Of a stretch of 64,000 nt of DNA, positions 4,721-20,521 are shown in pieces. This stretch comes from Microcella flavibacter. Its GTDB lineage: Bacteria; Actinomycetota; Actinomycetes; Actinomycetales; Microbacteriaceae. The notes beneath the pieces were generated by a model. It was given only the letters and a program-made list of their open reading frames with translations. It was not told the DNA's origin and ran no database searches. Within the stretch, counting starts at the first letter, position 1. Each line of letters opens with the position of its first letter. The position numbers were made by a program, and so were the translations under genes. The stretch is from the NCBI RefSeq assembly GCF_012530535.1, contig NZ_CP051299.1, positions 2,418,001 through 2,482,000 on the forward strand, given 5' to 3'.

Positions 4721-4729
4721 GCACCTCGA

Positions 4730-4976: not shown

Positions 4977-5021
4977 GTCGCCGCGGGCGCGCGCCCGCTC
5001 CGGCAGCACCGAGGAGCCCCC

Positions 5022-5483
5022 ATGGCCGAGCAGGACGGCACCGGCACGATGAGCGCCCGCGAGCGCGCCGCCATGAAGGAGCGCGCGGCCGAGCTGCGCG
5101 CCGAGTCGAAGCGCTCGAAGGGCTCGGCGAAGGCCGAGCAGCAGGCGCAGGACGTGCGCGACCGCATCGCCGAGATGCCCGAGCACGACCGGGTGCTCGC
5201 CGAGACGGTGCACGCGCTCGTGGCGGAGGAGGCTCCGCAGCTCGCTCCGAAGACCTGGTACGGGATGCCCGCCTGGGCGCGCGACGGAAAGGTGGTCGTC
5301 TTCTTCCAGGGCGCCGAGAAGTTCGAAGCGCGCTACGCCACCCTCGGCTTCAGCGACCAGGCGGCGCTCGACGAGGGCACCATGTGGGCGAACTCGTACG
5401 CGCTGACCGGCATCGGCGAGGCCGAGGAGCGGGCGATCCGCGCACTGCTGCGCCGAGCATCCACCCCGCCCGCGGCCGACTGA
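5022..5483 (+). CDS. DUF1801-like (YdhG/YjbR) protein
   Basis: A 153-aa protein. The first 55 residues are a charged helix rich in Arg, Glu and Ala. The rest has the DUF1801 fold signature: PKTWYGMPAWARDGKVVVFFQGAEKF followed by RYATLGFSD and ITGIGEAEE-like sequence near the end. The family includes the so-called iron chaperone YdhG/FrataxinL and related small proteins of unclear biochemistry. A GGAG ribosome site lies 8 nt before the ATG. It is the first backbone gene to the right of the island. Confidence 0.8.
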   Translation: MAEQDGTGTMSARERAAMKERAAELRAESKRSKGSAKAEQQAQDVRDRIAEMPEHDRVLAETVHALVAEEAPQLAPKTWYGMPAWARDGKVVVFFQGAEKFEARYATLGFSDQAALDEGTMWANSYALTGIGEAEERAIRALLRRASTPPAAD

Positions 5484-5506
5484 GCGACGAGGACCGCGCC
5501 CCGCTC

Positions 5507-5512
5507 TAGACT
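5507..5512 (+). promoter_or_regulatory. -10 box of the DUF554 gene
   Basis: TAGACT lies 49 bp upstream of the GTG start at 5562. A GGAGGAG ribosome site sits between the two. Confidence 0.45.
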
Positions 5513-5561
5513 CGCCTGCGGCCACCCGCTGGGGGCGGCCGCTGAGAGGCGGAGGAGCCCC

Positions 5562-6374
5562 GTGACCGGACTCGGCACCCTGCTGAACATCGTCGCAATC
5601 CTCGCCGGCGCGGCCATCGGCGTCGCCCTCGGCAACCGTCTGCCGGAGCGCACCACGCGTGTCGTCACCGACGCCCTCGGCCTCGTCGTGCTCGTCATCG
5701 GCGGCCTCAACCTCGCCTCGCTCACCGACGCCGCCTTCGTCGCGGAGGTGAGCGCCGGCGGCACGCTGCTCGTCGTGCTCGGCGCTCTGCTCATCGGCGG
5801 CATCGCGGGCTCGCTGCTGCGCATCGAGCAGCGTCTCGAGGAGTTCGGCGGGTGGCTGCAGCGGCGGTTCTCGCGCGGCAGCGAGACGGCGGAGGGAGCA
5901 TCCCGCCCCCTCGACGACACCACGACCGGCCTCGTCACCATCGCCTCGCTGAGCCCGCGCGAGCGCTTCATCACGGGCTTCGTGGATGCCTCGCTCGTGT
6001 TTGCGATCGGCCCGCTCGCCATCCTCGGCGCCTTCGCCGACGGCACGGGTCAGGGCATCGACCAGCTGGCCCTCAAATCGGTGCTCGACGGGTTCGGATC
6101 GATCGCCTTCGCCGCCTCGCTCGGGTGGGGGGTCGCGGCGGCGGCGCTTCCGGTCGGCATCTGGCAGGGCGGTCTCACCCTGCTGGCCGTGCTGCTCGGC
6201 TCGGTCATGGGCGACGCGGCGATCGCCGCCATCACCGCGACGGGAGGCGTGCTGCTGCTCGGCGTCGGGCTGCGGCTGCTCAACGTGCGCGCGGTCGCCG
6301 TCGGCGACCTGCTGCCCGCGCTCGTCGTGGCGCCGCTGCTCACCGTCGCGATCGGGGCGCTCGGCAACGCCTAG
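5562..6374 (+). CDS. DUF554 family integral membrane protein
   Basis: A 270-aa protein matching DUF554 (YdfK/YqgA type) over its full length. It starts with TLLNIVAILAGAAIGVALGNRLPER, has the conserved FITGFVDASLVFAIGPLAILGAFADG block, and ends with two further hydrophobic helices. About seven membrane segments are visible, with one hydrophilic insert near residues 95-125. Function is unknown; transport has been suggested for the family. The GTG start is supported by GGAGGAG 5-6 nt upstream. Confidence 0.92.
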   Translation: MTGLGTLLNIVAILAGAAIGVALGNRLPERTTRVVTDALGLVVLVIGGLNLASLTDAAFVAEVSAGGTLLVVLGALLIGGIAGSLLRIEQRLEEFGGWLQRRFSRGSETAEGASRPLDDTTTGLVTIASLSPRERFITGFVDASLVFAIGPLAILGAFADGTGQGIDQLALKSVLDGFGSIAFAASLGWGVAAAALPVGIWQGGLTLLAVLLGSVMGDAAIAAITATGGVLLLGVGLRLLNVRAVAVGDLLPALVVAPLLTVAIGALGNA

Positions 6375-6435
6375 GGGACGCACGGCGCTCGCTGCTGCCG
6401 GGAACATTGCGGCGCGCCCGCGCGTTCCCCCTCGT

Positions 6436-6690
6436 ATGACGACCGACACCACGACCCCCACCATCACCATGTACGGCGCCGACTGGTGCCGCGACTGCCG
6501 GCGCACCGAGGCCCTGCTCAACGACCTCGGCGTCGCGTGGACGAAGATCGACGTCGAGGCGAGCGCCGAGGCGGCCGCCGAGGCGCAGTCGATCAGCGGG
6601 CGCATGAACATCCCCGTCGTCGTGTTCCCCGACGGCTCGCATCTCGTCGAGCCGAGCGACGCGGCCGTGCGCGAGAAGCTCTCCCTCTAG
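6436..6690 (+). CDS. Mycoredoxin/glutaredoxin-like protein
   Basis: An 84-aa thioredoxin-fold protein. The active site is ADWCRDCRR (CxxC, about residues 16-19), with the cis-Pro signature MNIPVVVFPDGS. Actinobacterial mycoredoxins reduce protein-mycothiol mixed disulfides, and this length and fold suit that role; the CRDC variant is common among uncharacterised members. I took the internal ATG at 6436 because the longer frame upstream is alanine/arginine-rich shadow sequence. It stands alone between DUF554 and a small basic protein. Confidence 0.85.
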   Translation: MTTDTTTPTITMYGADWCRDCRRTEALLNDLGVAWTKIDVEASAEAAAEAQSISGRMNIPVVVFPDGSHLVEPSDAAVREKLSL

Positions 6691-6761
6691 TCGAGCACCG
6701 CGCGGCCCGGCCGACGGCGAGCGATGCCGCCCCGTCGGCCGCACCGCGACGCCGTGAGGCG

Positions 6762-6767
6762 TACGCT
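6762..6767 (+). promoter_or_regulatory. -10 box of the 49-aa gene
   Basis: TACGCT lies 44 bp upstream of the ATG at 6812 and resembles the -10 boxes of neighbouring genes. Confidence 0.4.
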
Positions 6768-6811
6768 CGGCACCAGGAGGCCGTCGAGCCTCGCATCGGA
6801 GACGAACCACC

Positions 6812-6961
6812 ATGGGCGAGAAGTCCGCACGCAAGAACACGACCAAGACCGTCGCATCGAAGACGCTCAAAGAGAAGCGCGTCGCCAAGGCCGACAAGAA
6901 GGCGGGCACGAACCGCTCGCAGAACTCCGACGCCGTCACGAACGCGACGAGCAAGCACTAG
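6812..6961 (+). CDS. Small lysine-rich protein (49 aa)
   Basis: A short frame starting MGEKSARKNTTKTVASK and ending in NATSKH. It is highly basic in its first 35 residues and has no membrane segment. GGAG lies 11 nt before the ATG, a -10 box lies upstream and a strong terminator hairpin starts 25 bp after the stop, so it looks like a real monocistronic gene. Similar small basic proteins recur in Microbacteriaceae, but I know of no function; nucleic-acid binding is a guess from charge alone. Confidence 0.7.
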   Translation: MGEKSARKNTTKTVASKTLKEKRVAKADKKAGTNRSQNSDAVTNATSKH

Positions 6962-6985
6962 CCCGTACGGGTATCAGCGCGAGCC

Positions 6986-7012
6986 GCGCCGCCGGGCACC
7001 GGCCGGCGGCGC
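6986..7012. terminator. Bidirectional terminator hairpin
   Basis: GCGCCGCCGG (6986-6995) pairs perfectly with CCGGCGGCGC (7003-7012) around a 7-nt loop. It lies exactly between the small rightward gene and the leftward hydrolase, so it can serve both. Confidence 0.75.
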
Positions 7013-7741
7013 TCAGGCGAGCTCGCGCCGGAAGAACCCGTCGATGCGCAGCCAGGCGTCGGCAGTATCCACCGGTCGCGGGCCCATCCCCATCACGGGA
7101 CCCATGACGACGCGCATGAGCCGCGGCCCCGCGGGCATCGCGTTGAGGAACCCGTGCCCGGCCTCCGGGTACTCGACGACGTCGTGCTCGATGCCGCGCG
7201 CCGTGAGCGCCGCGTCGAGCCGCGCGGCGGCTCCCTTCAGTGAGCGGTCGCGCCCGCCGAAACTGCCGACGAGGGGGCAGGCGCCGTCGAGCACATCGTC
7301 GAGGTCGGCGGGGAGCATCCCGTAGTTCACCGACGCCGCGCCGTACCCGCCCTGCCCGGCGAGCAGCAGCGCGAAGCCGCCGCCCATGCAGAAGCCGATG
7401 ACGCCGACCGTGCCGCGCGCGTCGGGCCGGGCGAGGAGGTGGGCGCGCGCCGCCTCGATGTCGTCGAAGGCCGGGCCGTGGCCGGCGCGCAGGGCGCGGA
7501 AGGTCGCGACCAGGCGTCTGCGCGCCCCGCCGCGGCTGAACAGGTCGGGCATGAGCACGAGGTAGCCGAGACCGACGAGCCGCTCGACGTGGTCGCGCAT
7601 CGCGGCGTCGACCCCGAAGGCCTCGTGCACGACGACCACCGCGGGGAACGGCCCCTGCCCCTCGGGCACGCCGAGCACGCCATTCAGGGCGCCGGGTCGG
7701 TCGGGGGCGGACTGCGGGATCACGACTTCGGTGACGGTCAT
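7013..7741 (-). CDS. Dienelactone hydrolase family protein
   Basis: A 242-aa alpha/beta hydrolase. The nucleophile elbow is GFCMGGGFA, with cysteine in place of serine as in true dienelactone hydrolases. The acid is probably in GSFGGRDRS and the histidine in PEAGHGFLN; VVVVHEAFGVD carries the oxyanion-side Glu typical of the family. In carboxymethylenebutenolidase the reaction is lactone ring opening in aromatic breakdown. No other ring-cleavage genes are nearby, so the real substrate is open. It is divergent from a GNAT gene 49 bp away. Confidence 0.9.
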   Translation of the reverse strand: MTVTEVVIPQSAPDRPGALNGVLGVPEGQGPFPAVVVVHEAFGVDAAMRDHVERLVGLGYLVLMPDLFSRGGARRRLVATFRALRAGHGPAFDDIEAARAHLLARPDARGTVGVIGFCMGGGFALLLAGQGGYGAASVNYGMLPADLDDVLDGACPLVGSFGGRDRSLKGAAARLDAALTARGIEHDVVEYPEAGHGFLNAMPAGPRLMRVVMGPVMGMGPRPVDTADAWLRIDGFFRRELA

Positions 7742-7790
7742 GGCCGCACCGTACGCACGGCCGCCGCGAGCGGGCTGGCAGGATGCTCGG

Positions 7791-8306
7791 GTGCTGTCGA
7801 TCCGACCCTACGAGCCGCGCGATGCCGACCCGACGCTCGAGGTGCTGCGGGCGGCCATCGCGGTGACGGCACGCGCCGACTACTCGGAGCAGCAGACGCG
7901 GCTCTGGGCATCCCGCGCCGAGCGCCCCGGCTGGCACGAGCGCCGCGCCGCCGTCGAGACCTGGGTCGCCGAGCTCGACGGCCGGGTCGTCGGCTTCATC
8001 GACCGCGACGAGCACGGGTACATCGACATGCTGTTCGTGCACCCCGAGGCGGGCGGGCGCGGCGTCGCGAGAGCGCTCGTCGAGCGGGTGATCGCCTCGG
8101 CCGAGGCCGCGGGGCTCGAGTGGATGACCGTGCACGCGAGCCTCACCGCGCGGCCCGTGCTGCTGCGCCTCGGCTTCGAGCCCGACCCCGCCGCGCACGA
8201 CGACGCCGCCGATGGCTCCCGGACGGTGCTCATCGACGGCGTCGCGTTCACGAACGTCCGCCTCGCGCGGCGGCTGCGGCCGGGCGCGGGGCGCGAGACC
8301 CTCTAG
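7791..8306 (+). CDS. GNAT family N-acetyltransferase
   Basis: About 171 aa. The acetyl-CoA-binding motif A is VHPEAGGRGVARALVERV, preceded by YIDMLFV, and the C-terminal strand is PVLLRLGFEPD. This is the standard GNAT layout (acetyl transfer to an amine; substrate unknown). I moved the start to GTG at 7791 (LSIRPYEPRDAD), which has AGGA 7 nt upstream; the longer frame begins inside the divergent hydrolase gene. Its stop shares CTAG with the stop of the convergent acyl-CoA oxidase gene. Confidence 0.9.
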   Translation: MLSIRPYEPRDADPTLEVLRAAIAVTARADYSEQQTRLWASRAERPGWHERRAAVETWVAELDGRVVGFIDRDEHGYIDMLFVHPEAGGRGVARALVERVIASAEAAGLEWMTVHASLTARPVLLRLGFEPDPAAHDDAADGSRTVLIDGVAFTNVRLARRLRPGAGRETL

Positions 8307-10435
8307 CGGCGCGCCTTCTTGCCGGCGACGAGGTCCTTCTCGTCGATCGGCGCGAGGCCGCTCGCGGCGAGGCCGGCGTAGTGCGCGCGGGCCTCCTCCT
8401 GGCGCTCGTGCTCGACGCCCGTCGCGATCTCGGCGCGGATGTGCTCGGGCTCGAGCAGGAACGCGTCGGTCAGCGCGACCGCGTGCGGGCGCAGGCGCGG
8501 CAGCAGGCGGCCGTCGATGTAGTCGGTGATGGCCTGCGCGCGATGGGCCGAGAGGCGCCCGTGGATGAGGTACCAGGCCAGGTTCTTCTCGATGAGCGTG
8601 AGCCCGAACAGGTCGCGCAGCCAGGTGAGAACCTGCTTCGTACCGGCGTCCTCGACCTGGTCGAGCGCGTCGGTGAAGGCCTCCCACTGCAGCAGCTCGC
8701 CGTGGGCGCGGGCGGCCTCGATGAGCTCGTTCTGGTGGCGGTTGAAGAGGGCGGCCGCGTCGGGCTTCGACATGCGGGATGCTCCGCGCAGGCGCCCCGC
8801 CAGCTCGGCCACCATCGTCTCGACCCGGTCGGTCAGCAGCTGCCGCTGGGCCGCGGTGCCGCGCACGTACCCGACCGAGCGGGCGGTCGAGCCGAAGTCG
8901 GCGACCGACTGCGCGAGGCGGCGCAGGCCGGAGCGGTGCATCGCGGCATCCCCCACCTGGTCGGCGACGTACGCGGCGAGCGCGCCCGCGTCGGCCTTGG
9001 CGAACTTCTTCGAGTAGTCGGTGAGCAGGCGCTTGGCGACGAGCTGCAGCAGCACCGTGTTGTCGCCCTCGAAGGTGGCGTAGACGTCGAGGTCGGCGCG
9101 CAGCTGCACGAGGCGGTTCTCGGCGAGGAAGCCCTGGCCGCCGCAGGCCTCGCGAGCCTCCTGGATGATGTCGAGCGCGTTCCAGGTGCTGAGCGGCTTG
9201 AGCGCCGCGGCGAGGGTCTCGAGATCCTGTCGCGACTCGTCGGTGTCGTCGGCGCCGGAGAAGACCTGGTCGAACTTGTCGAGGAACACCTCGTGCGCGA
9301 ACGACATGGCGTACGTGGCGGCGAGCTGCGGCAGCAGGCGGCGCTGGTGGCGCTGGTAGTCGAGCAGCACGACCTCGTCGTCGCTCGAGGCGGTGAACTG
9401 GCGGCGCTCGGCGCCGTAGCGGATGCCGATGGTGAGCGCGAGCTTGCTGGCGACGACGCAGGCGCCGTCGAGCGAGACGCGGCCCTGCACGAGCGTGCCG
9501 AGCATCGTGAAGAAGCGGCGGCCGGGGCTGGCGATGGGCGAGGTGTAGACGCCGTGCTCGTCGACGTCGCCGTAGCGGTTGAGCAGGTTGGTGCGGGGCA
9601 CGCGCAGGTTCGTGAAGTGCAGGCGGCCGTTGTCGATGCCGTTGAGGCCGCCCTTGAGGCCGTCGTCCTCGCCGCCGACGCCGGGCAGGAAGGCCCCGCT
9701 CTCATCGCGGATGGGGGCGTAGAAGGCGTGCACGCCGTGGTTGACGCCGCGGGTGATGAGCTGGGCGAAGATGACGGCGGCGCGGCCGTGCTCGGCGGCG
9801 TTGCCGAGGTAGTCCTTCCATGCGGCGCGGAACGGCGTGTGGATGACCCACTCATCGGTGTCGGCGTCGTAGGTGGCGGTGGTGCCGACGGCCGAGACGT
9901 CCGAGCCGTGCCCGGTCTCGGTCATCGCGAAGGCGCCCGGCATCTCCATCGTCATGATGGGCTTCAGCAGCTCGTCGTGGCGCTCGGTGCCGAGGTGCAG
10001 CACGGCCGAGCCGAAGAGGCCCCACTGCACGCCGGCCTTGATCTGCATGCTCGGGTCGCCGAGCAGCAGCTCCTCGAAGCTGGCGATGTTGCTGCCGTTG
10101 TCGTTGTCGCCGCCGAGCCGCTCGGGGAACGCCCGCAGCACCGAGCCGGTGGCGGCGAGCTTCTGCAGCTGCTCGAGAGTGCGCTCGCGGTGCTCGTGCA
10201 TGCCGAGCTCGGGGATGCGGTGGAACGCGGGGTCGGCCATGAGGGCGCGCGACTCGCGGCGGGCCTGCGCCCAGCGGCCGAGCAGCTGCTCGCCGAGCGA
10301 GGCGACGTCGACCGCCACGTCGGCGGTGTCGGGGCCGGTCGCGGAAGCGGGCGATGCGAGGCGCGGCGTGGGGCGCGCGGCCGCGGCGGGGCCGGCGGGG
10401 GTCTCGGTGCGGGCGGTGTCGGCGAGCTGGGTCAT
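8303..10435 (-). CDS. Acyl-CoA oxidase/dehydrogenase family flavoenzyme
   Basis: A 710-aa protein of peroxisomal acyl-CoA oxidase size. The FAD/acyl-CoA region shows FAMTETGHGSDVSAVGTTA, then RVSLDGACVVASKLALTI and RYGAERRQF. Near residue 450 are the EACGGQGF and TFEGDNTVLLQLVAKRLL motifs, which include the family's catalytic Glu. The C-terminal 200 residues form the second helical domain of oxidases. It catalyses the first step of fatty-acyl beta-oxidation. I chose ATG 10435 (MTQLADTA), with GGAG 7 nt upstream; a second ATG four codons earlier lacks a ribosome site. It stands alone, and its 3' end overlaps the GNAT gene by 4 bp. Confidence 0.9.
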   Translation of the reverse strand: MTQLADTARTETPAGPAAAARPTPRLASPASATGPDTADVAVDVASLGEQLLGRWAQARRESRALMADPAFHRIPELGMHEHRERTLEQLQKLAATGSVLRAFPERLGGDNDNGSNIASFEELLLGDPSMQIKAGVQWGLFGSAVLHLGTERHDELLKPIMTMEMPGAFAMTETGHGSDVSAVGTTATYDADTDEWVIHTPFRAAWKDYLGNAAEHGRAAVIFAQLITRGVNHGVHAFYAPIRDESGAFLPGVGGEDDGLKGGLNGIDNGRLHFTNLRVPRTNLLNRYGDVDEHGVYTSPIASPGRRFFTMLGTLVQGRVSLDGACVVASKLALTIGIRYGAERRQFTASSDDEVVLLDYQRHQRRLLPQLAATYAMSFAHEVFLDKFDQVFSGADDTDESRQDLETLAAALKPLSTWNALDIIQEAREACGGQGFLAENRLVQLRADLDVYATFEGDNTVLLQLVAKRLLTDYSKKFAKADAGALAAYVADQVGDAAMHRSGLRRLAQSVADFGSTARSVGYVRGTAAQRQLLTDRVETMVAELAGRLRGASRMSKPDAAALFNRHQNELIEAARAHGELLQWEAFTDALDQVEDAGTKQVLTWLRDLFGLTLIEKNLAWYLIHGRLSAHRAQAITDYIDGRLLPRLRPHAVALTDAFLLEPEHIRAEIATGVEHERQEEARAHYAGLAASGLAPIDEKDLVAGKKARR

Positions 10436-10696
10436 GACGTTCTCCATCGAGGGTGCCGTGCGCGGGGTTCTGGTCTGCTGCGGTGCTGGTCCGCGGGGGT
10501 CGACGGGTGCGGAGCACGCGGTCGTCGACGCATCATCACGGTAGGCGCGGGGCTGCGCGCGGCGCCGTTCGTGGTGCCGCACCCACGAAGCGGTTCGGGA
10601 TGCTCCGGGCCGGGTTTGTCGATGACCGCAGGTTGCTGGGCGCAGCCTTAGTGGAACCCGGCACAGAGCATCCCGTCACCGCACCCTCGGAGCGGC
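10436..10696. other. Intergenic region between the acyl-CoA oxidase and thioredoxin genes
   Basis: This gap of about 260 bp holds the divergent promoters. I see no gene on either strand with family signal. The only clear element is the palindrome at its right end, listed separately. Confidence 0.5.
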
Positions 10697-10712
10697 ATAC
10701 CCCGCGGGGTAT
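10697..10712. promoter_or_regulatory. Perfect 16-bp palindrome before the thioredoxin gene (CsoR-like box)
   Basis: ATACCCCGCGGGGTAT reads the same on both strands and ends 26 bp before the thioredoxin ATG, where an operator would overlap the promoter. CsoR/RicR-family repressors, which sense Cu(I) or persulfide, bind GC-rich palindromes of the form TACCCC-N-GGGGTA, so a member of that family is the best candidate ligand. No such regulator gene lies in the window. Confidence 0.6.
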
Positions 10713-10738
10713 CGACGCCCTGTGCGAGACTGGAGCGC

Positions 10739-11146
10739 ATGGCTACCGTCGACCTGACCACCGCGGACTTCGAGCAGACCGTGACCGCCCCCGGCATCAC
10801 CCTCGTCGACTTCTGGGCGGAGTGGTGCGGCCCCTGCCGCATGTTCGCCCCCGTCTACGAGAAGGCCAGCGAGCAGCACCCCGACGTGACCTTCGGCAAG
10901 CTCGACACCGAGGCCGAGCAGGCGATCGCCGCGGCGGCGAGCATCCGCTCCATCCCGACGCTCATGGCGTTCCGCGACGGCGTGCTCGTCTTCGCGCAGC
11001 CCGGCGCCCTGCCGGCGCCCGCGCTCGAGCAGGTCATCACCGCCGTCAAGGAGCTCGACATGGACGAGGTGCGCGCGAAGATCGCCGCGCAGGAGGCGCA
11101 GGCCGCGCCGCCGCAGGGCGAGCAGCCGAGCGAGCCCTCGGCCTAG
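10739..11146 (+). CDS. trxA: Thioredoxin
   Basis: A 135-aa thioredoxin. The active site is WAEWCGPCRMF (CGPC, about residues 32-35) and the cis-Pro loop is RSIPTLMAFRDG. The last 25 residues are an Ala/Gln/Glu/Pro-rich tail absent from the minimal fold. It reduces protein disulfides with thioredoxin reductase, which is not in this window. The palindrome 26 bp upstream suggests metal- or sulfide-responsive control. The stop codon overlaps that of the convergent acyltransferase by 4 bp. Confidence 0.95.
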   Translation: MATVDLTTADFEQTVTAPGITLVDFWAEWCGPCRMFAPVYEKASEQHPDVTFGKLDTEAEQAIAAAASIRSIPTLMAFRDGVLVFAQPGALPAPALEQVITAVKELDMDEVRAKIAAQEAQAAPPQGEQPSEPSA

Positions 11147-12074: not shown

Positions 12075-13313
12075 GTGACCACCCGATCCCACCGCACCCG
12101 CACCGCCCGCCGCCGGCGCACCCTCGCGATCACCGCCGGCGCGCTCGTGGCCGTGCTTGTCGCCGGGGTGGCCGCCGCGCTCATCACGGCCGGCCGACCG
12201 GCCCCGTCCCCGACCGCCGCGCCCGTCGAGGAGACCCCCGTGCCCACCCCCGAACCGAGCCCGACGCCCGATACCGACGCCCTCGAGGGCATCGAGCTCG
12301 ACCCACTGCAGCAGCGGCGCATCGACGAGCTGCGCGCCTGGACCGCATGGCTCGCGGCGAACGACGCCGAGGGGTACGTCGGCGAGCTCGGCTGGGCCGC
12401 CACCCCCGAGTGGCAGCAGCTGGCCGACTACTGGTACCGCATCGCCGAGCAGGAGGGCCTGTGGACGAGCCTGTGGGCGGCGGGCAGCCACTGGGGCGAC
12501 TCCTACGCTCTGACCGCCTACGGCGCGAGCCCCGACTCCGACCAGCTGGACATCGCGCTGCCCCAGGCAGAGCTGCTCGAGGCGCAGCAGGGCAGCGAGC
12601 AGCGGCACGGCGTGAACCTCGCGGGGCTCGAGTTCAGCACCGAGGAGGGCTTCTCCTCGGCCGCGCCCGGCGTGCTCGGGCGCGACTTCTTCGACGAGCC
12701 GGAGGCGTCCTTCGCCTACCTGGCCGACCGCGGGATCGACTTCGTGCGCCTGCCGTTCCGGTGGGAGCGCCTCCAACCGCAGCTGGGCGGTGCGCTCGAC
12801 GAGTCCTACGCCGCGACCATCGACGCGATGCTCGACGCGGCCGAGAGGCACGGCGTCGACGTGGTGCTCGATGTGCACAACTTCGGGCGGTACCTCACCT
12901 CGGGGGGAGAGCTGCGGCTCGGTACCCCCGAGCTGCCCGGCTCCGCGCTGTCGGACGTGTGGCTGCGCATCAGCGAGCGGTGGGGCGGGCATCCCGCCGT
13001 CGTCGCGTACGGTCTCATGAACGAGCCGCACTCCCTCGGGGACGATCTCGCCGCCGAGGCGCTGCGCTGGGAGGGCGTCTCGCAGGAGGTGCTGACGGCG
13101 CTGCGCGACGCCGGCGACGGGATGCTCGTGCTCGTGCCCGGATACGACTGGTCGAGCCTGTCCCGGTGGACGCAGACGCACCCCGACGGCTGGATCACGG
13201 ACCCCGCCGACAACTTCCGCTACGAGGCGCACCACTACTGGGATGCCACAGGGGAGGGCGCGTACGCCCTCCCCTATGCCGACGAGCTCGCCGCCGTTCA
13301 GATCAACGGCTGA
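12075..13313 (+). CDS. Secreted/anchored GH5-like glucanase with circularly permuted barrel
   Basis: About 412 aa from the GTG at 12075. Residues 17-40 are a single membrane anchor or signal segment after an Arg-rich start, then a Pro/Thr linker to about 68. Residues 83-160 resemble the C-terminal part of GH5 cellulases: helix TAWLAAND, then GYVGELGW with the nucleophile-position Glu104, then LWAAGSHWGDSYALTAYG. Only afterwards come strands of the N-terminal part: HGVNLAGLEF, DFVRLPFRWERLQP, VVLDVHNFGRY, the acid/base motif GLMNEPH (Glu317), VLVPGYDWSS and YEAHHYW. The protein ends soon after this, where a normal GH5 would still need its nucleophile strand. Both catalytic Glu are present, but in swapped order. 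It is tail to tail with the polysaccharide operon (11-bp overlap). Beta-glucan hydrolysis is inferred. Confidence 0.85.
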   Translation: MTTRSHRTRTARRRRTLAITAGALVAVLVAGVAAALITAGRPAPSPTAAPVEETPVPTPEPSPTPDTDALEGIELDPLQQRRIDELRAWTAWLAANDAEGYVGELGWAATPEWQQLADYWYRIAEQEGLWTSLWAAGSHWGDSYALTAYGASPDSDQLDIALPQAELLEAQQGSEQRHGVNLAGLEFSTEEGFSSAAPGVLGRDFFDEPEASFAYLADRGIDFVRLPFRWERLQPQLGGALDESYAATIDAMLDAAERHGVDVVLDVHNFGRYLTSGGELRLGTPELPGSALSDVWLRISERWGGHPAVVAYGLMNEPHSLGDDLAAEALRWEGVSQEVLTALRDAGDGMLVLVPGYDWSSLSRWTQTHPDGWITDPADNFRYEAHHYWDATGEGAYALPYADELAAVQING

Positions 13314-14700
13314 CGGCCCGCCGGGAGGAGTCCACCCGAAGAGACTCCGCCATGATCGCGGCGACGCGCTGACCGTCGCGTACCGCGTAGTTGGTGCCCC
13401 GGTCCTCCGGGAAGACCTGGGAGAAGTTGGCAAGGTACACGCCCGGCAGCGGCGTCTCCATGGCCGGGATCCGGTCGGCGAAGGTCACATCGACGATGTG
13501 CTGCGCGTTGCGGAACGTGAACACGTGCGACTCCTGCACGAGCTCCGGGCGGAAGGCGGGCAGCAGCGACGCGAGACCCGCGTACCACTTCTCGCGCAGC
13601 TCATCGTCGGGCAGCGTCATCAGCGGATCGTCGTTCTGCACGTAGTCGCCGATGTAGTAGATGTACCGGCCGCCGGTGCGCTCGGTGCCGATGAGCGAAT
13701 CGAGGCTCAGGAACACCAGGAACGGCGCATCCAGGTCGTGGATCTGGTGCCAGTACGTGTTCGTGATGGGCTCGCTGGTCGTGATGACCATGAGCTTCGC
13801 GCCGAGGTAGTCGATGGTCGTCAACTGCTCGGTGTACGCGTCGGTCATGGCGGGATGCTCGGCCGCGAGCCGCGCGAACGGCGTGCTCGGGATCGCCCCG
13901 AGCACCCGGTCGTACTGCTTCGTGACGCCGTTCACCGTCACGGTCGGCCTACCGTCGAGCTCGCCGATCGCCGAGACCTTCGTGCTCGTGCGGAGCACCA
14001 CGCCGCGCTGCTCGAGCTCCTCGACCCAGCGGTCGACCATGATGCGGAAGCCGCCGTCGAAGTAGCCGAGGCGCTCGGTGGCCTCGCCCTTGATCTTCGA
14101 GGTCTGGCGCACATGGATGCGCGTCCAGAGCCACGCCATCGTGACCTTGTCCCAGTAGATGTCGAACTTGCCCTTGAGCAGCGGCTTCCAGACGATGTCG
14201 GCGGCGCGCTTGCCGTTGACGCGGCACAGCCACTCGTAGGCGGTGACCTTCGTCAGCGGCTCCCAGTTTCGCAGGAACTGCAGCCGCAGGCCGGTGAGGC
14301 CGGTGCGGATGCGGTCGACGAAGGAGAGCGGGGTGAAGCGCAGCAGCTCCATCGGCGTGGTGAAGCCGTACTCCGAGCCCTGGTGGAAGGCGCGGATGGA
14401 GCTCGGGTGGAAGTCGAGCTTGTCGCGGATGCCGAGCTCCTCGGCCATCCCGATCATCCACTCGTCGGTGGTGTAGAGGAAGTGGTACGCCTGCTCGAGC
14501 GGGAAGCCGTCGTCGAGCGTGAAGCCCGCGACGAGGCCGCCGAGCTGCGGTGCGGCCTCGAAGACCTCGACCTGATGGCCGAGCTTGGAGAGCTCGTAGG
14601 CCGCGGTCAGGCCGCTGAAGCCGCCGCCGATGACGGCGATGCGGGCGGGGGCGTCGGATGCTGCATGGTCAACCGGACCCGGGGAGAGCGTGTCGGTCAT
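13303..14700 (-). CDS. FAD-dependent oxidoreductase of the polysaccharide operon
   Basis: A 465-aa protein. The N-terminal Rossmann motif is IAVIGGGFSGLTAAYELSKLG (residues about 21-41) and the acidic strand end is VEVFEA. The C-terminal FAD contact is GVYLANFSQVFPEDRGTNYA. Overall it resembles the UDP-galactopyranose mutase/protoporphyrinogen oxidase/amine oxidase superfamily (NAD(P)-binding, COG1232). Members recur beside GtrA and GT39 genes in actinobacteria, where they may modify a lipid-linked or nucleotide sugar; the reaction is unknown. Its ATG overlaps the GtrA stop (ATGA), so the two are translationally coupled. It is last in the operon. Confidence 0.85.
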   Translation of the reverse strand: MTDTLSPGPVDHAASDAPARIAVIGGGFSGLTAAYELSKLGHQVEVFEAAPQLGGLVAGFTLDDGFPLEQAYHFLYTTDEWMIGMAEELGIRDKLDFHPSSIRAFHQGSEYGFTTPMELLRFTPLSFVDRIRTGLTGLRLQFLRNWEPLTKVTAYEWLCRVNGKRAADIVWKPLLKGKFDIYWDKVTMAWLWTRIHVRQTSKIKGEATERLGYFDGGFRIMVDRWVEELEQRGVVLRTSTKVSAIGELDGRPTVTVNGVTKQYDRVLGAIPSTPFARLAAEHPAMTDAYTEQLTTIDYLGAKLMVITTSEPITNTYWHQIHDLDAPFLVFLSLDSLIGTERTGGRYIYYIGDYVQNDDPLMTLPDDELREKWYAGLASLLPAFRPELVQESHVFTFRNAQHIVDVTFADRIPAMETPLPGVYLANFSQVFPEDRGTNYAVRDGQRVAAIMAESLRVDSSRRAVSR

Positions 14701-15179
14701 GAGGAGTTCCTTCCCGTGGAGGGGGCGAAGGTGATCTTCTTGTTGAGGGAGTACTGCAGCGCCACGACGGGCAGCAGCGTGAGGATCTTGGCGACGACGG
14801 GGTCGAGACCCGCGACGTCCACGGCGATCCAGATGATCGCCGTGCTGAGGAGCCATCCCGCGCCCGTGACGGCGGCGAAGGAGAGGAAGCGCAGCCACAG
14901 CCGGTCGGTGACGCGGAAGTTACCGAACGAGTTCGCGAGGAAGCTCGCGACCATGGCGACACCGGTGGAGAAGGTGTTGCTGAGGAGGGGGTGCCAGCCG
15001 AAGACCCGGTCGGCGAGCAGGAACAGGCCGACGTCGAGCACGACGGCCCCGCCGCCGATCACGAGGTAGCGCACGAGGGTCGCGCGGCGGGCGATCATGC
15101 CGACGAGGCCGCTGCGCTCGGCCGCGGGCCGGAGTGCGGGGGCCCCGACGGGCGCGGTGCGGGGTTCGGTGGTGGTCAT
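14697..15179 (-). CDS. GtrA family membrane protein
   Basis: A 160-aa protein with four membrane segments. Signs of the family are RYLVIGGGAVVLDVGLFLLADRVFG at the start, FLANSFGNFRVTDR (the FxxxRxxTF-like motif after helix 2), and KKITF near the end. GtrA proteins are thought to help flip polyprenyl-phosphate sugars across the membrane. I preferred ATG 15179, which has GGAG 5 nt upstream, over GTG 15185. It sits between the GT39-GH8 gene and the FAD oxidoreductase with coupled starts. Confidence 0.88.
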   Translation of the reverse strand: MTTTEPRTAPVGAPALRPAAERSGLVGMIARRATLVRYLVIGGGAVVLDVGLFLLADRVFGWHPLLSNTFSTGVAMVASFLANSFGNFRVTDRLWLRFLSFAAVTGAGWLLSTAIIWIAVDVAGLDPVVAKILTLLPVVALQYSLNKKITFAPSTGRNSS

Positions 15180-15181
15180 GA

Positions 15182-17821
15182 TCACTCCAGTTCGAGAGCG
15201 GCGGATGCCGGGATGAGGGTCTGGAAGCGGTGCCAGTTCCAGCCGGTGACGTGGTCGGTCAGTGACGTCGGGGCGCGCCAGGAGCCGTCGTCGGCGTCGT
15301 ACCGCGCGAAGACCCTCGCCTCGTAGAGCGCCTGCGGGTCGGCGTCGATGACCCCGAGCTGCGCGAGCATCGCGACCGTCGAGCCCGATGCGAAGCTGCC
15401 CGCCTGCTCGTCGTACGCCACGATCTGCGGAGCGACCGCCTGCAGCAGGGCGGTCGCGGAGGCGTCGCCCGCCTCCGCATCGAGCAGGAGCGAGGGCACC
15501 ATGCGCAGCGTGTCCGAGCCGAGCGCGTCGGCGCCGTCACCGATGAGCGGCTCCGCCGTCTCGAGCTCGCCGTCGGCGGTGAGCACCACCCAGTCGGGGA
15601 TGGTGCCGCGCTCCTCGACCAGCCGGTCGAGGAAGACGTAGCCGTCGTCGATGAGCCGCTGCCAGTCGTACTGCGGCATGGAAACCGCGAGCTCGCGGTA
15701 CAGCACCGGATCGAAGTACGAGGGGTTGAGCAGGTTGTCGTCGATCGAGCCGTCGGCGGACGAATCGACGAGCGCGAGGCCGTCCTGCTCGACGACGCAG
15801 CGCTCCCAGAAGTCGGCGGCCATGCCCCGGGCCTCGAGGACGAGGTCGCCCGCCGCGGGCCAGGTGTCGCCCGCCCTCGCGAGCGAGGCGATCATCCGCT
15901 GATCCGCTCCGCAGACCGTGTCGCTCTCGAGCAGCCGTCCCTCGCCGTCCGCGCCGGTCTGCCACCTCCAGGAGATGAGACCGTCGGTGGACCGGTACCG
16001 CAGGTGGTCGTTCGTCCACTGCCACAGGCCGCGGAACCACTGCTCGTCGTCCTGCTCGAGCGCGGCATCCATCGCGAGGGCCTGATCCATGGACGTCGTG
16101 ATGCCGTCGCCGTCCGTGACGCGTCCGTAGTCGCGGACGAATCCGTCGAGGAACGACGCCCACGAGTCCTGCAGCACGACGTCGTTGCGGTCCTTGACCT
16201 CGTAGACCTGCGCCCAGTCGCCGTTCGTCGAGATGAGGGCGTCGAGGTCGTTGAAGCTCGTCGTGCCCTCGGTGAAGCTCGCCACCGGCACCGAATGCTC
16301 GAACGCCTCGCGCAGGACGGGGATCGTGCCCTGGAACATCTGGCGGATGAGCTCGTGCGTGACCACGAGGTAGTCGATGTTCCGCCAATCATCGGCGTAG
16401 ACCTCGCGCAGCTCCGGGTCGTACTCGGAGGTGAAGAAGTACTGCGCGTTCTCGAAGCCGCGCTCCTGCGCGAGCGCGGGGTACGCGAAGTTGTCGACCA
16501 CGACGATCGCGCTCGGGTCGACGTTCTCGGCCACCCAGTCGACCGCGAGCAGCTGATTGCTCGTCTCGTCGGCGATCGCCGCCTTCGGCGGCACCGCGAG
16601 GGAGAACCCGACGATGAGCGCCGTCGAGAGCAGGACGCCCAGCGACGCGCGCACCATGCGCCACGGCACCACCGTGAGCATCCATCCGACGGCAACGCCC
16701 ACGGCGATCGCGAAGAAGGGCACGAGGGGGGCGACGTACAGGTCGAGCACGATCTTGCCGCGCGTGAGGAAACCGACGTAGCCGACCATCATCAGGAGCA
16801 TCGCGAGCGGGTAGAGCGAGCGCCGGCGCAGCACGACCGCGAGCGCGAGCAGTGCGACGGCGCCGGCGGCGCCGAGGATCGGCGTGACCGGATCCTTGAT
16901 GAGCCAGGCCTGCAGGGCCTGGAAGAAGCTGCTGTCCTGCTGCCACGGCAGTCCGAAGTCTCCGCGACCCGCCTGGACGAGCATGGTGTCGATCAGACTG
17001 ACCCGCAGCGGCTCGCCGTCGGCACCGAGCGGAGCCGGGAGGAGCTCTTCGTTCAGCAACGCGTAGACGACGAACATGAGCACGACGCCGCCGGCGAAGG
17101 CGAGCCACATGGCGAGGGCGTGCTTGCGCTGATGGGGCGCGGCGCGCGCCCAGAGCAGCACGAGGAAGCCGATGCCGAAGAACGCGGCGTTGAGCTTCGT
17201 CAGCACCGCGATGCCGAAGAACAGCCCGCTCGTGATCACGGCCGTGAGGGTGAGCTGCCGCCGAAGCAGCAGCGCGATCGCGACGAGCAGCCACAGCGCC
17301 ATGAGGTTGTCGAGCAGCACGCGGCGCTGGAAGTACAACCCCAGGGGGGACGCCGCGAAGATCACCACGGCGATGATGCCGGCGGCAACGCTGCCGTTGC
17401 CCATGCGCTTGGCGACGTAGTACACGAGCGCAGTCGCGATGACGTGCACGACGAGCATGAGCACCCGGCCGGACTGCAGGAGCGAGCCGAAGATCGCATC
17501 GCCGCCGGTGAGGCCCAGCCAGGCGCCGATCGTCATCCATCCGACCGGTGCGTGGTCGTAGCGGTAGGTGTACACGTCGAGCTGGCCGCTCGTGATGAAC
17601 GCCCAGCCACGGGAGAGGTAGGTGCCCTCATCGTTCTCGTAGTACGGGTAGCCGAACATGTTGGTCGCGTGCAGCGAGGCGCTGAAGGCGATGAGCCCGA
17701 GCACGAGCAGGATCTCGAGCCCGCGCCGGTCGAGGACGCGTCGGCGGCGGGGCGATGGCGCGGGGAGCGGTGCGGGTGACGCGGCGTGCCGGGCTGCGGG
17801 CCGGTCCAGGGTCGCCGTCAT
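15182..17821 (-). CDS. GT39-like membrane glycosyltransferase fused to a GH8-like domain
   Basis: An 879-aa protein. Residues 33 to about 430 form roughly 11-12 membrane helices of the GT39/ArnT (GT-C) type, with the acidic loop motif ENDEGTYLSRG (residues 62-72) and FQRRVLLDNLMALWL. Such enzymes use polyprenyl-phosphate sugars outside the membrane. From about residue 545 to the end a soluble domain resembles GH8 (alpha6/alpha6 barrel): WFRGLWQWTNDHLR, DGLISWRW, NPSYFDPVLYREL (Asn699), WQRLIDDGYVFLDRL, GTIPDWV and TLRMVPSLLLD. At the SEGxxYGM site, where GH8 keeps its general-acid Glu, the sequence is SMDQALAM (Met578), so activity may be lost. I know of no standard family with this fusion. 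Its start overlaps the GT2 stop (TGATG). Confidence 0.8.
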   Translation of the reverse strand: MTATLDRPAARHAASPAPLPAPSPRRRRVLDRRGLEILLVLGLIAFSASLHATNMFGYPYYENDEGTYLSRGWAFITSGQLDVYTYRYDHAPVGWMTIGAWLGLTGGDAIFGSLLQSGRVLMLVVHVIATALVYYVAKRMGNGSVAAGIIAVVIFAASPLGLYFQRRVLLDNLMALWLLVAIALLLRRQLTLTAVITSGLFFGIAVLTKLNAAFFGIGFLVLLWARAAPHQRKHALAMWLAFAGGVVLMFVVYALLNEELLPAPLGADGEPLRVSLIDTMLVQAGRGDFGLPWQQDSSFFQALQAWLIKDPVTPILGAAGAVALLALAVVLRRRSLYPLAMLLMMVGYVGFLTRGKIVLDLYVAPLVPFFAIAVGVAVGWMLTVVPWRMVRASLGVLLSTALIVGFSLAVPPKAAIADETSNQLLAVDWVAENVDPSAIVVVDNFAYPALAQERGFENAQYFFTSEYDPELREVYADDWRNIDYLVVTHELIRQMFQGTIPVLREAFEHSVPVASFTEGTTSFNDLDALISTNGDWAQVYEVKDRNDVVLQDSWASFLDGFVRDYGRVTDGDGITTSMDQALAMDAALEQDDEQWFRGLWQWTNDHLRYRSTDGLISWRWQTGADGEGRLLESDTVCGADQRMIASLARAGDTWPAAGDLVLEARGMAADFWERCVVEQDGLALVDSSADGSIDDNLLNPSYFDPVLYRELAVSMPQYDWQRLIDDGYVFLDRLVEERGTIPDWVVLTADGELETAEPLIGDGADALGSDTLRMVPSLLLDAEAGDASATALLQAVAPQIVAYDEQAGSFASGSTVAMLAQLGVIDADPQALYEARVFARYDADDGSWRAPTSLTDHVTGWNWHRFQTLIPASAALELE

Positions 17822-19134
17822 CAGGCGGCCTGGGGGATGGGATCGAGCGGGGATGCCGACACCGGCTGGGCGTCCTGGGTGCCCAGCCGGTGCCGTCCGG
17901 CGTGCGCGGTCTTCTCCCATCCGCGGCTCCCCCGGATCTCCCGGAGCAGCGCGCGAACCGCGCTCACCATCAAGAGGCCCTGGTAGGGCAGGAACGTGAT
18001 CACCAGGGCCAGGTAGTGGTACCACTTCACGGGCACGCGCTGATCGCGGCCGAACTCGTAGAGCCCGACCAGACTGATCAGCAGCATGACGACCGCGAGC
18101 AGTAGAGGGATGAACGACAGCATGCTCACCACGACGGGGAGTTTGGTCGTCGCGCCGATGAGGATCATGATCGGCGCGGAGGCGATGACGATCGCCATGT
18201 AGGACGGGGCAGTGAGCACGTAACCGATCAGGACGCGGTGCAGGAGCGTGGGCAGCTGCAGCCACTCCTTCTTGCGGAGGATCTGGAGGAATCCCTGGTT
18301 CCAGCGAGTGCGCTGCTTGATGAACGCCTTCGTGTCGTGGGGAACCTCCTCGCGCGTGACGTGCTCGGCGTCGTACATCACGTCGAAGGTCTTGCCGGCG
18401 ATGCTGAGTCGGATCCCGAGGTCGGCGTCCTCCGTGAGACCCTCCTCGTCCCAGCCGCCGACCGCGGCCAGGTCGGCTGCCTTGAAGAACACGGTGTTGC
18501 CGCCGAGGGGCACGGCCCCGGCCTTCGCGAAGTAGTGCATGCGCGACTTGAACCAGAAGAAGTACTCGAGCACGTTGTGCGCGGCGAACCAGTGGCTGCC
18601 GAAGTCCATGAGCTGCACGCCGCACTGCAGCACGTCGACGTCGCGACGCAGGTAGATGGTGTTGACGATGGAGAAGATGTCGCGGCTGACGTCGTCCTCC
18701 GAGTCGAAGATCGTGATGAGCTCGTGCTTCGCCGCCGCGAGCCCGAGGTTCATGGCCCGCGACTTGCCCGGAGGGTTCTCGAACACCAGGATCGTCGCGT
18801 TGTCGATGCCGTGCTCGCGCTTGGCGCGCTCCGCCGCTTCGATGGTCTCGACGTCGTCGGAGGTGCAGATGACCATGAGCTCGACGAGCTCGCTCGGGTA
18901 GTCCGCCTCGCCGAGGCGGCGCAGGGTCTCGCCGATGACCTCGTGCTCGTGGCGCGCCGGCAGCAGCACGGTGAAGCCGTGGAAGGGCGGCTCGAAGGTC
19001 TCCGGCCGCCCGCCCCGGCGGAGCCGGTCGGGGTGCTCCCAGATGTAGAGCGTCTGGCGGATGCTGACGATGCTCTGCGCGAGCAGGATGAGGGCGCTGA
19101 CCGTGACCAGCACCGCGAGGATGCTAGGCAGCAC
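17821..19134 (-). CDS. Processive GT2 glycosyltransferase (cellulose-synthase-like)
   Basis: A 437-aa inner-membrane synthase. One N-terminal membrane helix is followed by a cytosolic GT2 domain with FTVLLPARHEHEVIGETLRRL, the metal-binding IFDSEDD, the acceptor motif TEDADLGIR and the processivity motif QRTRWNQG. Four to five membrane helices follow from about residue 300. The D, DxD, TED and QxxRW set is that of cellulose and related beta-glycan synthases (COG1215). There is no PilZ domain, so direct c-di-GMP control as in BcsA is not expected. It overlaps the upstream gene by 11 bp and the downstream gene by 1 bp. Confidence 0.88.
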   Translation of the reverse strand: MLPSILAVLVTVSALILLAQSIVSIRQTLYIWEHPDRLRRGGRPETFEPPFHGFTVLLPARHEHEVIGETLRRLGEADYPSELVELMVICTSDDVETIEAAERAKREHGIDNATILVFENPPGKSRAMNLGLAAAKHELITIFDSEDDVSRDIFSIVNTIYLRRDVDVLQCGVQLMDFGSHWFAAHNVLEYFFWFKSRMHYFAKAGAVPLGGNTVFFKAADLAAVGGWDEEGLTEDADLGIRLSIAGKTFDVMYDAEHVTREEVPHDTKAFIKQRTRWNQGFLQILRKKEWLQLPTLLHRVLIGYVLTAPSYMAIVIASAPIMILIGATTKLPVVVSMLSFIPLLLAVVMLLISLVGLYEFGRDQRVPVKWYHYLALVITFLPYQGLLMVSAVRALLREIRGSRGWEKTAHAGRHRLGTQDAQPVSASPLDPIPQAA

Positions 19135-20350
19135 GAGCGGCTCTCCGCACCCAGATGTACGTGCTCGAGACGTAGTAGTTCACGACGAACGCGGCACCGA
19201 TGCCGAGCAGCTGGGCGAGGAGGTAGAACACTCCGAGGTTCGACAGCACGACGAAGCAGGTGAAGATCACGGTCTGGGTGAGCGCGGTCGTGAGCTCGTA
19301 TTGGCCGAAGGCCTTCAGCAGGGAGCGCACGGGGATGCGCCGCCCGTGCGAGCGGCGGAACTTCTTGAAGGTGAAGCGCGTGTGGAAGGTGAAGTTCCAC
19401 ACGATGCTCGCCTGGATGGCGATCGCCGAGAGGAGCACGACGACGCTGTCATCGGGGAAGAAGCGACGCAGGAACCAGAGCATGCCGAGGTTCACCACGG
19501 TGCCCAGCAGGCCCACTGTGATGAACCGAGCGAGCTGCTTGAACGGCGAGTCGTCGTTGAGCCGGTACGCGATGCGGAAGAACTCGACGATGTCGCTGAG
19601 GCTCGCCTTCGAGTCGCCCGAGGCGCGGGTGTGGAAGCTGATGGGCACCTCGGTGACCTTCCACGACCCGGTCACGAAGGCGTTGGCGAGGAAGATCATG
19701 AAGCCGTAGCCCTTGGCCTGCACGCCTTCGTAGGGGATCCTCTCGAGCACCTCACGGCGAACCGCGCGGAAGTTGGTGGTGAGCTCCTTGAGGGCCGGGT
19801 CGACCCCGCCGAGCATCCGGGCGACGGCCCCGGCGACCCGCGTGCGGATGATGTACCCGAGAGGCCAGTTGCCGGGGATGAGCCCGCCGTCGACGTACCG
19901 CGAGCCGATGGCGATGTCGGCGCCGTCGTTGATCGCCTGCAGCAGCTTCGGCACGTCGGCCGGCGCGTGCGAGAAGTCGGCGTCCATCGTCATGATGACG
20001 TCGTAGCCGCGCTCGACGGCCTCGTCGAAGGCGCGCTTCATCGCGTTGCCGAGCCCGGACTTCTGCCCGTGGGAGACGATGACGCGGCCGGCGAAACGAC
20101 CGGCGGCGAGGCGCTCGGCGAGCTCGCCGGTGCCGTCGGGGGAGGAGTCGTCGCGCACGAGCACGTCGAACTGCCAGCCGGTGCCGGCCTGGATGGGGAG
20201 CGAGAACAGCGCCTCGAGCAGCGGCTCCAGGTTGTCGATCTCGTTGTACGTGGGGACGATCATCACCGCGCGGCCGCGCGGGGCCGGAGCGGCGGACGGG
20301 TGCTCGGGACGGGTTCCGGGCGCTGCGGGCGAAGAGAGGGAGAGGGTCAT
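19124..20350 (-). CDS. Polyprenyl-phosphate sugar synthase (GT2, DPM1-like) fused to GtrA
   Basis: About 408 aa. The N-terminal half is a dolichol-phosphate-mannose-synthase-type GT2: VMIVPTYNEIDNLEPLLEAL, VLVRDDSSPDGTGELA, MTMDADFSHAPADVP and IGSRYVDGG. From about residue 255 a four-helix GtrA domain follows (RFITVGLLGTVVNLGMLWFL, WNFTFHTRFTFKKF). It should make a polyprenyl-phosphate sugar in the cytosol and help move it outward, feeding the GT39-like enzyme two genes downstream. The start is uncertain: I chose ATG 20350 (MTLSLSSP), about 40 codons before the first motif; no strong ribosome site is visible and the frame stays open to 20515. Confidence 0.85.
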   Translation of the reverse strand: MTLSLSSPAAPGTRPEHPSAAPAPRGRAVMIVPTYNEIDNLEPLLEALFSLPIQAGTGWQFDVLVRDDSSPDGTGELAERLAAGRFAGRVIVSHGQKSGLGNAMKRAFDEAVERGYDVIMTMDADFSHAPADVPKLLQAINDGADIAIGSRYVDGGLIPGNWPLGYIIRTRVAGAVARMLGGVDPALKELTTNFRAVRREVLERIPYEGVQAKGYGFMIFLANAFVTGSWKVTEVPISFHTRASGDSKASLSDIVEFFRIAYRLNDDSPFKQLARFITVGLLGTVVNLGMLWFLRRFFPDDSVVVLLSAIAIQASIVWNFTFHTRFTFKKFRRSHGRRIPVRSLLKAFGQYELTTALTQTVIFTCFVVLSNLGVFYLLAQLLGIGAAFVVNYYVSSTYIWVRRAARAA

Positions 20351-20521
20351 GAGGGGTGCTGTCAATCGGGTCAGCGACCACGACGTCGGGCAGATCGACG
20401 CTGCGACCACCAGCGAGGGTGCGCGGATGGCCGCTCCTCTGCCGCGCGGGGGCGAGGAGAACGATCTGCCCGGCGTCGTCAACGGGTCAGGTGCGTGGGG
20501 GGGCGTGCGGAGCACGAAGGG

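What the first reader, a model, noticed from the sequence alone, without database searches (positions are those of the whole stretch)
12075..13313. A GH5 glycosidase with apparently circularly permuted barrel
The protein contains all GH5 landmark strands, but in the order beta7-beta8-beta1 to beta6. GELGW (nucleophile Glu104) and LWAAGSHWGD come first; HGVNLAG, RLPFRW, DVHNFG, LMNEPH (acid/base Glu317), PGYDW and EAHHYW follow, and the protein stops where the nucleophile strand would be expected. The helix TAWLAAND, which normally precedes that strand, also sits at the N-terminus, so the cut falls cleanly between helix elements. The order is read directly; identity of the strands rests on recall of GH5 cellulases such as Trichoderma Cel5A. 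I do not recall a described natural permutation of this family.
Basis: partly seen in the sequence, partly recalled or inferred. Interest (0 to 1): 0.88.

Follow-up and report, generated by a model that had tools for sequence, protein, structure and literature searches.

The report
Naturally circularly permuted GH5 endoglucanase
This bacterial sugar-cutting enzyme carries all the parts of a well-known cellulase barrel but with the chain cut and rejoined at a different place, and relatives in other actinobacteria share the same rearrangement, apparently from one ancient event.

Summary
A profile of 70 ordinary homologues hits the native protein in two inverted pieces (residues 170-407 to profile 6-244; 78-148 to 248-318). 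Rotating the sequence gives one hit, 292 instead of 243 bits; 20 shuffled controls gain at most 6 bits. E104, E317 and Y388 align with RBcel1 nucleophile E245, acid/base E135 and Y201. An AlphaFold model from 24 permuted sequences is confident (pLDDT 95.3, pTM 0.93), eight strands in permuted order. The 24 sequences (Actinomycetota, one Saccharimonadota MAG) share one cut site. In a tree without one long-branch row, the other 23 form a single clade (99/92); dN/dS is 0.21 against the same-genus orthologue. Nine searches of an open paper library listed no permuted GH5. A glycan-assembly locus (GT2 synthase-like, PMT, usually GH8) lies beside 11 of the 24 genes. Best reading: a surface-tethered GH5_5-like retaining endo-beta-glucanase that trims or remodels that locus's glycan. 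Permutation is strongly supported; activity, substrate and role are inferred.

The parts
   Evidence: Pfam Cellulase 2.6e-31, profile 16-202 of 272 only
12129..12185 (+). N-terminal hydrophobic segment (residues 19-37) after an Arg-rich stretch: probable signal anchor or signal peptide
   Evidence: mean Kyte-Doolittle 2.54 over 19 residues; in the 21 of 24 relatives and self examined the best value ranged from 0.85 (L123) to 3.48
12195..12299 (+). Pro/Thr-rich linker (residues 41-75)
   Evidence: read from the translation
12306..12518 (+). alpha6-beta7-alpha7-beta8 segment (residues 78-148), C-terminal in ordinary GH5
   Evidence: profile positions 248-318, 34.3 bits; strands at residues 100-106 and 130-136 in the model
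12384..12386 (+). Glu104, catalytic nucleophile, in strand beta7
   Evidence: aligns with RBcel1 Glu245; invariant in 24 of 24 permuted sequences
12519..12605 (+). junction of the old C- and N-termini: alpha8 (residues 163-170) and short linker to beta1 (178)
   Evidence: secondary structure of the model; length varies between relatives
12582..13295 (+). beta1-beta6 segment (residues 170-407), N-terminal in ordinary GH5
   Evidence: profile positions 6-244, 242.9 bits; structural match of this part to bacterial GH5 endoglucanases
13023..13025 (+). Glu317, acid/base, just after strand beta4
   Evidence: aligns with RBcel1 Glu135; invariant in 24 of 24
13303..14898 (-). neighbour: FAD-dependent amine-oxidase-like protein, convergent with the GH5 gene
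   Evidence: Pfam Amino_oxidase 9.2e-28; NCBIfam PRK07233 1e-120, above cut-off
14697..15185 (-). neighbour: GtrA-type membrane protein
   Evidence: Pfam GtrA 1.1e-20
15182..18625 (-). neighbour: PMT-type membrane glycosyltransferase fused to a GH8 (BcsZ-like) domain; true start probably near 17.8 kb
   Evidence: Pfam PMT_2 1.3e-7 and Glyco_hydro_8 1.6e-22; BcsZ profile 78 bits, under its cut-off of 299
17821..19134 (-). neighbour: GT2 synthase-like glycosyltransferase
   Evidence: phmmer with the L040 and L062 homologues 4e-141 and 2e-100; NCBIfam XrtP-associated GT 88 bits, PgaC_IcaA 72, CelA 34, all under cut-off
19124..20515 (-). neighbour: GT2-GtrA (polyprenyl-phosphate-sugar-synthase-like)
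   Evidence: Pfam Glycos_transf_2 8.4e-25 and GtrA 1.5e-14

Best explanation
The gene encodes an exported, surface-tethered, catalytically intact GH5 (GH5_5-like) retaining endo-beta-1,4-glucanase whose (beta/alpha)8 barrel is a natural circular permutant. The ancestral N- and C-termini are joined by a short linker between alpha8 and beta1, and new termini were opened in the beta6-alpha6 connection. Nucleophile E104 (beta7) and acid/base E317 (beta4) come together in the closed barrel as in ordinary GH5. The permutation probably arose once in an actinobacterial lineage, most likely by tandem duplication, fusion and trimming (inferred). In this genome and its closest kin it probably trims or remodels a beta-glucan-like surface polysaccharide made by the neighbouring GT2 / PMT-GH8 locus. 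Shown: sequence permutation, conservation, single clade without L126, selection, gene neighbourhood. Predicted: fold. Inferred: activity, tethering, substrate, role.
For: Two inverted profile hits, one hit after rotation, shuffled controls flat. The best single-hit score rises on rotation in 24 of 24 permuted proteins, and all 24 share the cut (first piece starts at profile 240-249, second ends at 238-245). Both catalytic Glu invariant in 24 of 24, matched to RBcel1 E245 and E135. AF2 model pLDDT 95.3, pTM 0.93 with strand order beta7, beta8, beta1-beta6. Structure alignments pair model 104-343 with residues 1-228 of RBcel1 and Ps_Cel5A and leave the model's first ~100 residues and the targets' last ~95-100 unpaired. 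One clade: 23 rows, 99/92, 100% of 200 bootstrap trees (98/95 and 97%). dN/dS 0.21 against the same-genus orthologue; 0.215 and 0.176 for the two pieces. GT2-synthase plus PMT beside 11 of 24 permuted genes, and beside ordinary GH5 genes in L148 and L149.
Against: No activity data and no solved structure. Barrel closure is inferred from homology and model confidence; I had no coordinates to measure. The glycan locus was not found at 12 of 24 permuted genes (several on contigs of 5-14 kb, but four with about 20 kb in view), and a thirteenth (L038) shows only the amine oxidase at a contig end, so one common role is not shown. The neighbouring GT2 falls far under the cellulose-synthase cut-off, so the polymer is unknown. 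With the long-branch row L126 included, one clade has support of only 15. In XacCel5A rows the structural match ends at 261-267, with rmsd 3.4-4.0, because the C-terminal helix is paired further along.
Confidence: 0.87

Rival explanations
1. Two separate domains: a GH5 lacking beta7/beta8 preceded by an unrelated N-terminal domain that merely resembles them, so no closed barrel and no activity.
For: In the single-sequence phmmer the N-terminal piece scores only 11.4 bits; Pfam covers only profile 16-202 of 272.
Against: The piece scores 34.3 bits with the ordinary-GH5 profile, taking up where the other stops, and 26.3 bits against 4lx4 from the permuted profile. Nucleophile invariant in 24 of 24; confident model with pTM 0.93; purifying selection on that piece, omega 0.215.
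Confidence: 0.03
2. Assembly or annotation artefact, or a scrambled pseudogene.
For: None found.
Against: Uninterrupted frame; same order in 24 sequences from many assemblies, including the single-contig genomes G000 and G018; dN/dS about 0.2.
Confidence: 0.01
3. A real permutant that has left plain endoglucanase chemistry: it acts mainly as a transglycosylase, or on a different beta-linked polymer (mixed-linkage, beta-1,3 or amino-sugar glycan) made by the neighbouring locus.
For: Nearest solved relatives RBcel1 and Ps_Cel5A are transglycosylating GH5_5 enzymes (passages of PMC8900817). The neighbouring GT2 scores higher with PgaC_IcaA (72 bits) than with CelA (34), both under cut-off.
Against: The retained catalytic residues fit hydrolysis equally; [quoted passage not shown] a second glucanase-family domain (GH8) lies in the locus.
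Confidence: 0.25
4. Several independent permutations at the same loop rather than one.
For: Long-branch L126 is loosely placed (support 15 for one clade with it).
Against: The same cut in 24 of 24, and one clade at 99/92 without L126.
Confidence: 0.07

Closest known systems
RBcel1 / Ps_Cel5A / XacCel5A (bacterial endo-1,4-beta-glucanases; PDB 4ee9, 4lx4, 4w7u; the first two called GH5_5 in PMC8900817)
   Different: ordinary order beta1-beta8; here alpha6-beta8 precede beta1
GH70 glucansucrases versus GH13
   Same: a natural circular permutation of a glycosidase-type (beta/alpha)8 barrel (passages of PMC4919382)
   Different: other family and chemistry, chain starts at alpha3, barrel in two segments with domain C inserted; here it starts at alpha6 and is one uninterrupted segment
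MalS, GH13_19 alpha-amylase
   Same: described as having circularly permutated domains (abstract start in listing; paper not opened)
   Different: GH13, and a permutation at the level of domains by that wording
Transaldolase versus class I aldolase
   Same: natural circularly permuted TIM barrel, shifted by two units (passages of PMC2213659)
   Different: not glycosidases
BcsZ (GH8) of cellulose synthase operons
   Same: works like it, if the neighbourhood reading holds: a glucanase encoded with glycan-polymerising GT2 proteins; a BcsZ-like GH8 domain is itself in the locus
   Different: different family and fold; the GT2 of the locus is far under the cellulose-synthase cut-off
Ordinary GH5 beside the GT2-PMT-GT2 module in L148 and L149
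   Same: same family and same kind of locus
   Different: ordinary strand order, and far from the permuted clade by path length

Membership tests
Glycoside hydrolase family 5 (PF00150, clan GH-A) | profile match above the curated cut-off | tested here: met
   109.5 bits against 23.5; 24 of 24 members of A2, the window included, match PF00150
Glycoside hydrolase family 5 (PF00150, clan GH-A) | acid/base Glu at beta4 and nucleophile Glu at beta7 (placement recalled) | tested here: met
   E317 and E104 align with RBcel1 E135 and E245; E104 lies in modelled strand 100-106, E317 four residues after strand 309-313
Glycoside hydrolase family 5 (PF00150, clan GH-A) | (beta/alpha)8 barrel fold | tested here: met
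   by prediction: eight main strands alternating with helices, pLDDT 95.3, pTM 0.93; beta1-beta6 part superposes on GH5 structures; closure not measured
GH5 with ordinary chain order (not part of the sequence-based family definition) | beta1 to beta8 in N-to-C order | tested here: not met
   order is beta7, beta8, beta1-beta6
GH5 subfamily 5 (GH5_5) | falls among GH5_5 sequences | tested here: inconclusive
   best PDB matches RBcel1 and Ps_Cel5A are called GH5_5 in PMC8900817; no CAZy subfamily models on hand
[quoted passage not shown]
   needs an assay
Glucanase of a cellulose synthase (bcs) operon | a cellulose synthase above the curated cut-off beside it | tested here: not met
   neighbouring GT2 scores 33.7 bits against the CelA cut-off of 699; the second GT2 has no CelA hit; not every neighbour was scanned
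GH70-type permuted barrel | GH13/GH70 homology, chain starting at alpha3 | tested here: not met
   the one family above its Pfam cut-off is GH5; chain starts at alpha6

The most novel reading that the evidence does not exclude
The permutation is functional re-plumbing. Moving the termini into the beta6-alpha6 loop puts the membrane tether on the catalytic face of the barrel, so the active-site cleft faces the membrane and the nascent glycan emerging from the GT2/PMT machinery, whereas an ordinary N-terminally tethered GH5 would face away. A membrane-facing GH5 together with the GH8 domain of the PMT fusion would then edit the polymer as it leaves the cell: an undescribed actinobacterial glycan-assembly system.
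Probability: 0.3. Interest if true: 0.8.

Novelty: new variant of a known kind. Interest (0 to 1): 0.66.

Why it matters
GH5 is a large, much studied cellulase family, and among the passages and listings I saw, natural permutation of a glycosidase-type barrel is described for GH70, with permutated domains in MalS (GH13_19) and, named in passing, beta-glucanases and beta-glucosidases, not for GH5. This clade gives a naturally evolved GH5 permutant, with ordinary GH5 at comparable loci in other genomes, so the effect of chain order on folding, stability, export and activity can be tested on natural proteins. It also shows a practical blind spot: Pfam reports this protein as a partial GH5 (16-202 of 272) without the stretch that holds the nucleophile, so such proteins could be mis-annotated as truncated or inactive.

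Tried and rejected

Papers: nine accepted searches of the open PMC library; bear on permutation, 33 and 66 on RBcel1 and on the locus. Several lists were capped (25 of 51, 15 of 22, 15 of 123, 12 of 14, 10 of 13). No listed title or abstract start describes a permuted GH5; most subscription papers and bioRxiv are outside that library. Seen as passages: PMC3526467, PMC11046441, PMC8900817, PMC6719137, PMC4725902, PMC2213659, PMC2395249, PMC4919382, PMC8250049. All others seen as search listings only. I found nothing on the locus.

Rows dropped: ordinary GH5 rows reduced from 70 to 43 by identity before the trees; L126 dropped, L003 (zero distance from L118, same genome). In some searches only the best five candidate places per genome were scored.

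Full report
Observation. window:12075-13313:+ is one open frame of 412 aa. Pfam gives Cellulase (GH5) at 2.6e-31 but only profile 16-202 of 272. phmmer against the PDB finds bacterial endoglucanases first; on RBcel1 (4ee9) residues 179-398 fall on 6-211 and residues 85-146 on 226-287. Residue by residue this puts E104 on E245, E317 on E135 and Y388 on Y201. Passages of PMC8900817 name E245 the nucleophile, residue 135 the acid/base and Y201 a residue of the -1 subsite.

Rotation test. A profile was built from 70 ordinary-order homologues. The native protein gives two inverted hits: residues 170-407 to positions 6-244 (242.9 bits) and 78-148 to 248-318 (34.3 bits). Only profile positions 245-247 lie between the two, and nothing is duplicated. 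Of 34 rotation points in steps of ten residues, four (145-175) give a single hit of 288.6-292.0 bits; at 165 it covers 6-317. With the N-terminal piece shuffled, 20 controls placed behind the second piece score 243.0-248.9, against 244.2 for the second piece alone. The gain comes from the piece itself in the rotated place.

A family, not an oddity. In genome contigs the best 80 loci of 197 relatives were kept: 11 permuted, 64 with an ordinary-order frame, 5 in which the first piece was not detected. In 60 genomes (own and relatives) only G018, same genus, has a close orthologue (86%); that is 2 of 26 same-genus genomes counting the window's own, some of them incomplete, so the gene looks patchy. 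In 396 genomes of the order, 9 match at 1e-20: 6 permuted (own plus 5 of one genus, which by frame length are largely the Demequina genes) and 3 ordinary. In 396 of the phylum, 12 match: 10 permuted by a full-length span, 2 fragments left undecided. 24 permuted proteins were aligned. All 24 have the same cut (first piece starting at profile 240-249, second ending at 238-245), and all 24 gain in best single-hit score when rotated. Both catalytic Glu are invariant.

Phylogeny and selection. On rotated sequences the permuted proteins are one side of a branch. With the long-branch row L126 that branch has support of only 15. Without it the 23 others have 99/92 and 100% of 200 bootstrap trees, and 98/95 and 97% in a second set rooted on two distant GH5 rows. 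dN/dS is 0.21 between window and G018, 0.215 and 0.176 for the two pieces, and 0.22 and 0.39 for two Demequina pairs. The likeliest history is one ancient event. Duplication, fusion and truncation is the model proposed for GH70 (passage of PMC4919382); I saw no intermediate here.

Neighbourhood. The gene faces, tail to tail, a run on the other strand: FAD amine-oxidase-like (13303-14898), GtrA (14697-15185), a PMT glycosyltransferase fused to a BcsZ-like GH8 domain (15182-18625), a GT2 synthase-like protein (17821-19134) and GT2-GtrA (19124-20515). The GT2-synthase plus PMT pair was found at 11 of 24 permuted genes: window, L002 (as L134), L031-L037, L040 and L062, with GH8 fused in all but L062. 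L038 shows only the amine oxidase at its contig end. The pair was not found at the other 12: some lie on short contigs, but L138, L140, L145 and L146 show about 20 kb without it, so part of the family works elsewhere. L062 has the order GT2syn-PMT-GT2-GH5. L148 and L149 have the same order with an ordinary GH5. Of 13 further PMT loci in the phylum sample, 4 carry GH8 fused or adjacent, one a weak GH5-like frame, and none a clear GH5. The glycanases therefore look like exchangeable parts of a glycan-assembly module (inference), and the permuted GH5 is one of them.

Mechanism. Shown: permutation, conservation, catalytic residues, N-terminal hydrophobic segment. Inferred: double-displacement retaining endo-beta-glucanase, exported, tethered in this lineage, trimming or remodelling the locus's polymer. 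Some members elsewhere show twin-arginine-like N-termini (motif recalled; sequences), so they may be secreted free. Established TIM-barrel topology (recalled) puts beta-alpha loops on the catalytic face, so a tether entering at the beta6-alpha6 loop would sit near the active-site rim; this is the basis of the novel case and was not measured.

Known or not. Natural permuted TIM barrels are known (GH70; transaldolase); PMC2395249 also names bacterial beta-glucanases, glucosyltransferases and beta-glucosidases among natural permutants (passage). I found none described for GH5 in the searches named under Tried and rejected; the GH5 subfamily paper PMC3526467 has no occurrence of 'permut' in its main text. 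This is a new variant of a known kind: a GH5 by the tested sequence criteria, with a new chain order.

Noticed in passing
window 15182-18625 (-): One frame fuses a PMT-type membrane glycosyltransferase to a GH8 (BcsZ-like) domain; the fusion recurs beside permuted GH5 in Demequina and other relatives.
   Followed up: partly
L040 (Candidatus Saccharimonadia MAG), 4623-10990: Permuted GH5 with GT2 and PMT-GH8 genes on a stretch of 50.7% GC (eight actinobacterial loci measured 67-74%). Saccharibacteria live on actinobacteria (recalled), so this may be a host-to-symbiont transfer; misbinning was not excluded.
   Followed up: partly
L165-L177: A GT2-synthase plus PMT pair, in 7 of these 13 loci with a further GT2, occurs in 14 of 396 sampled Actinomycetota genomes (own included), also in five genomes of a large-genome family (f21), there without a GH5 or GH8 hit in the stretch fetched.
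   Followed up: partly
L042, L043, L044: Loci with two adjacent GH5 frames a few bases apart (in L043 the second shows only one piece), the kind of tandem from which a permutant could arise.
   Followed up: no
L124, L125, L128, L129, L132, L133: A divergent permuted subgroup, all six from family code f34, with larger loops and twin-arginine-like N-termini in some; G673 carries two of them, G632 one plus a permuted gene of another subgroup.
   Followed up: no
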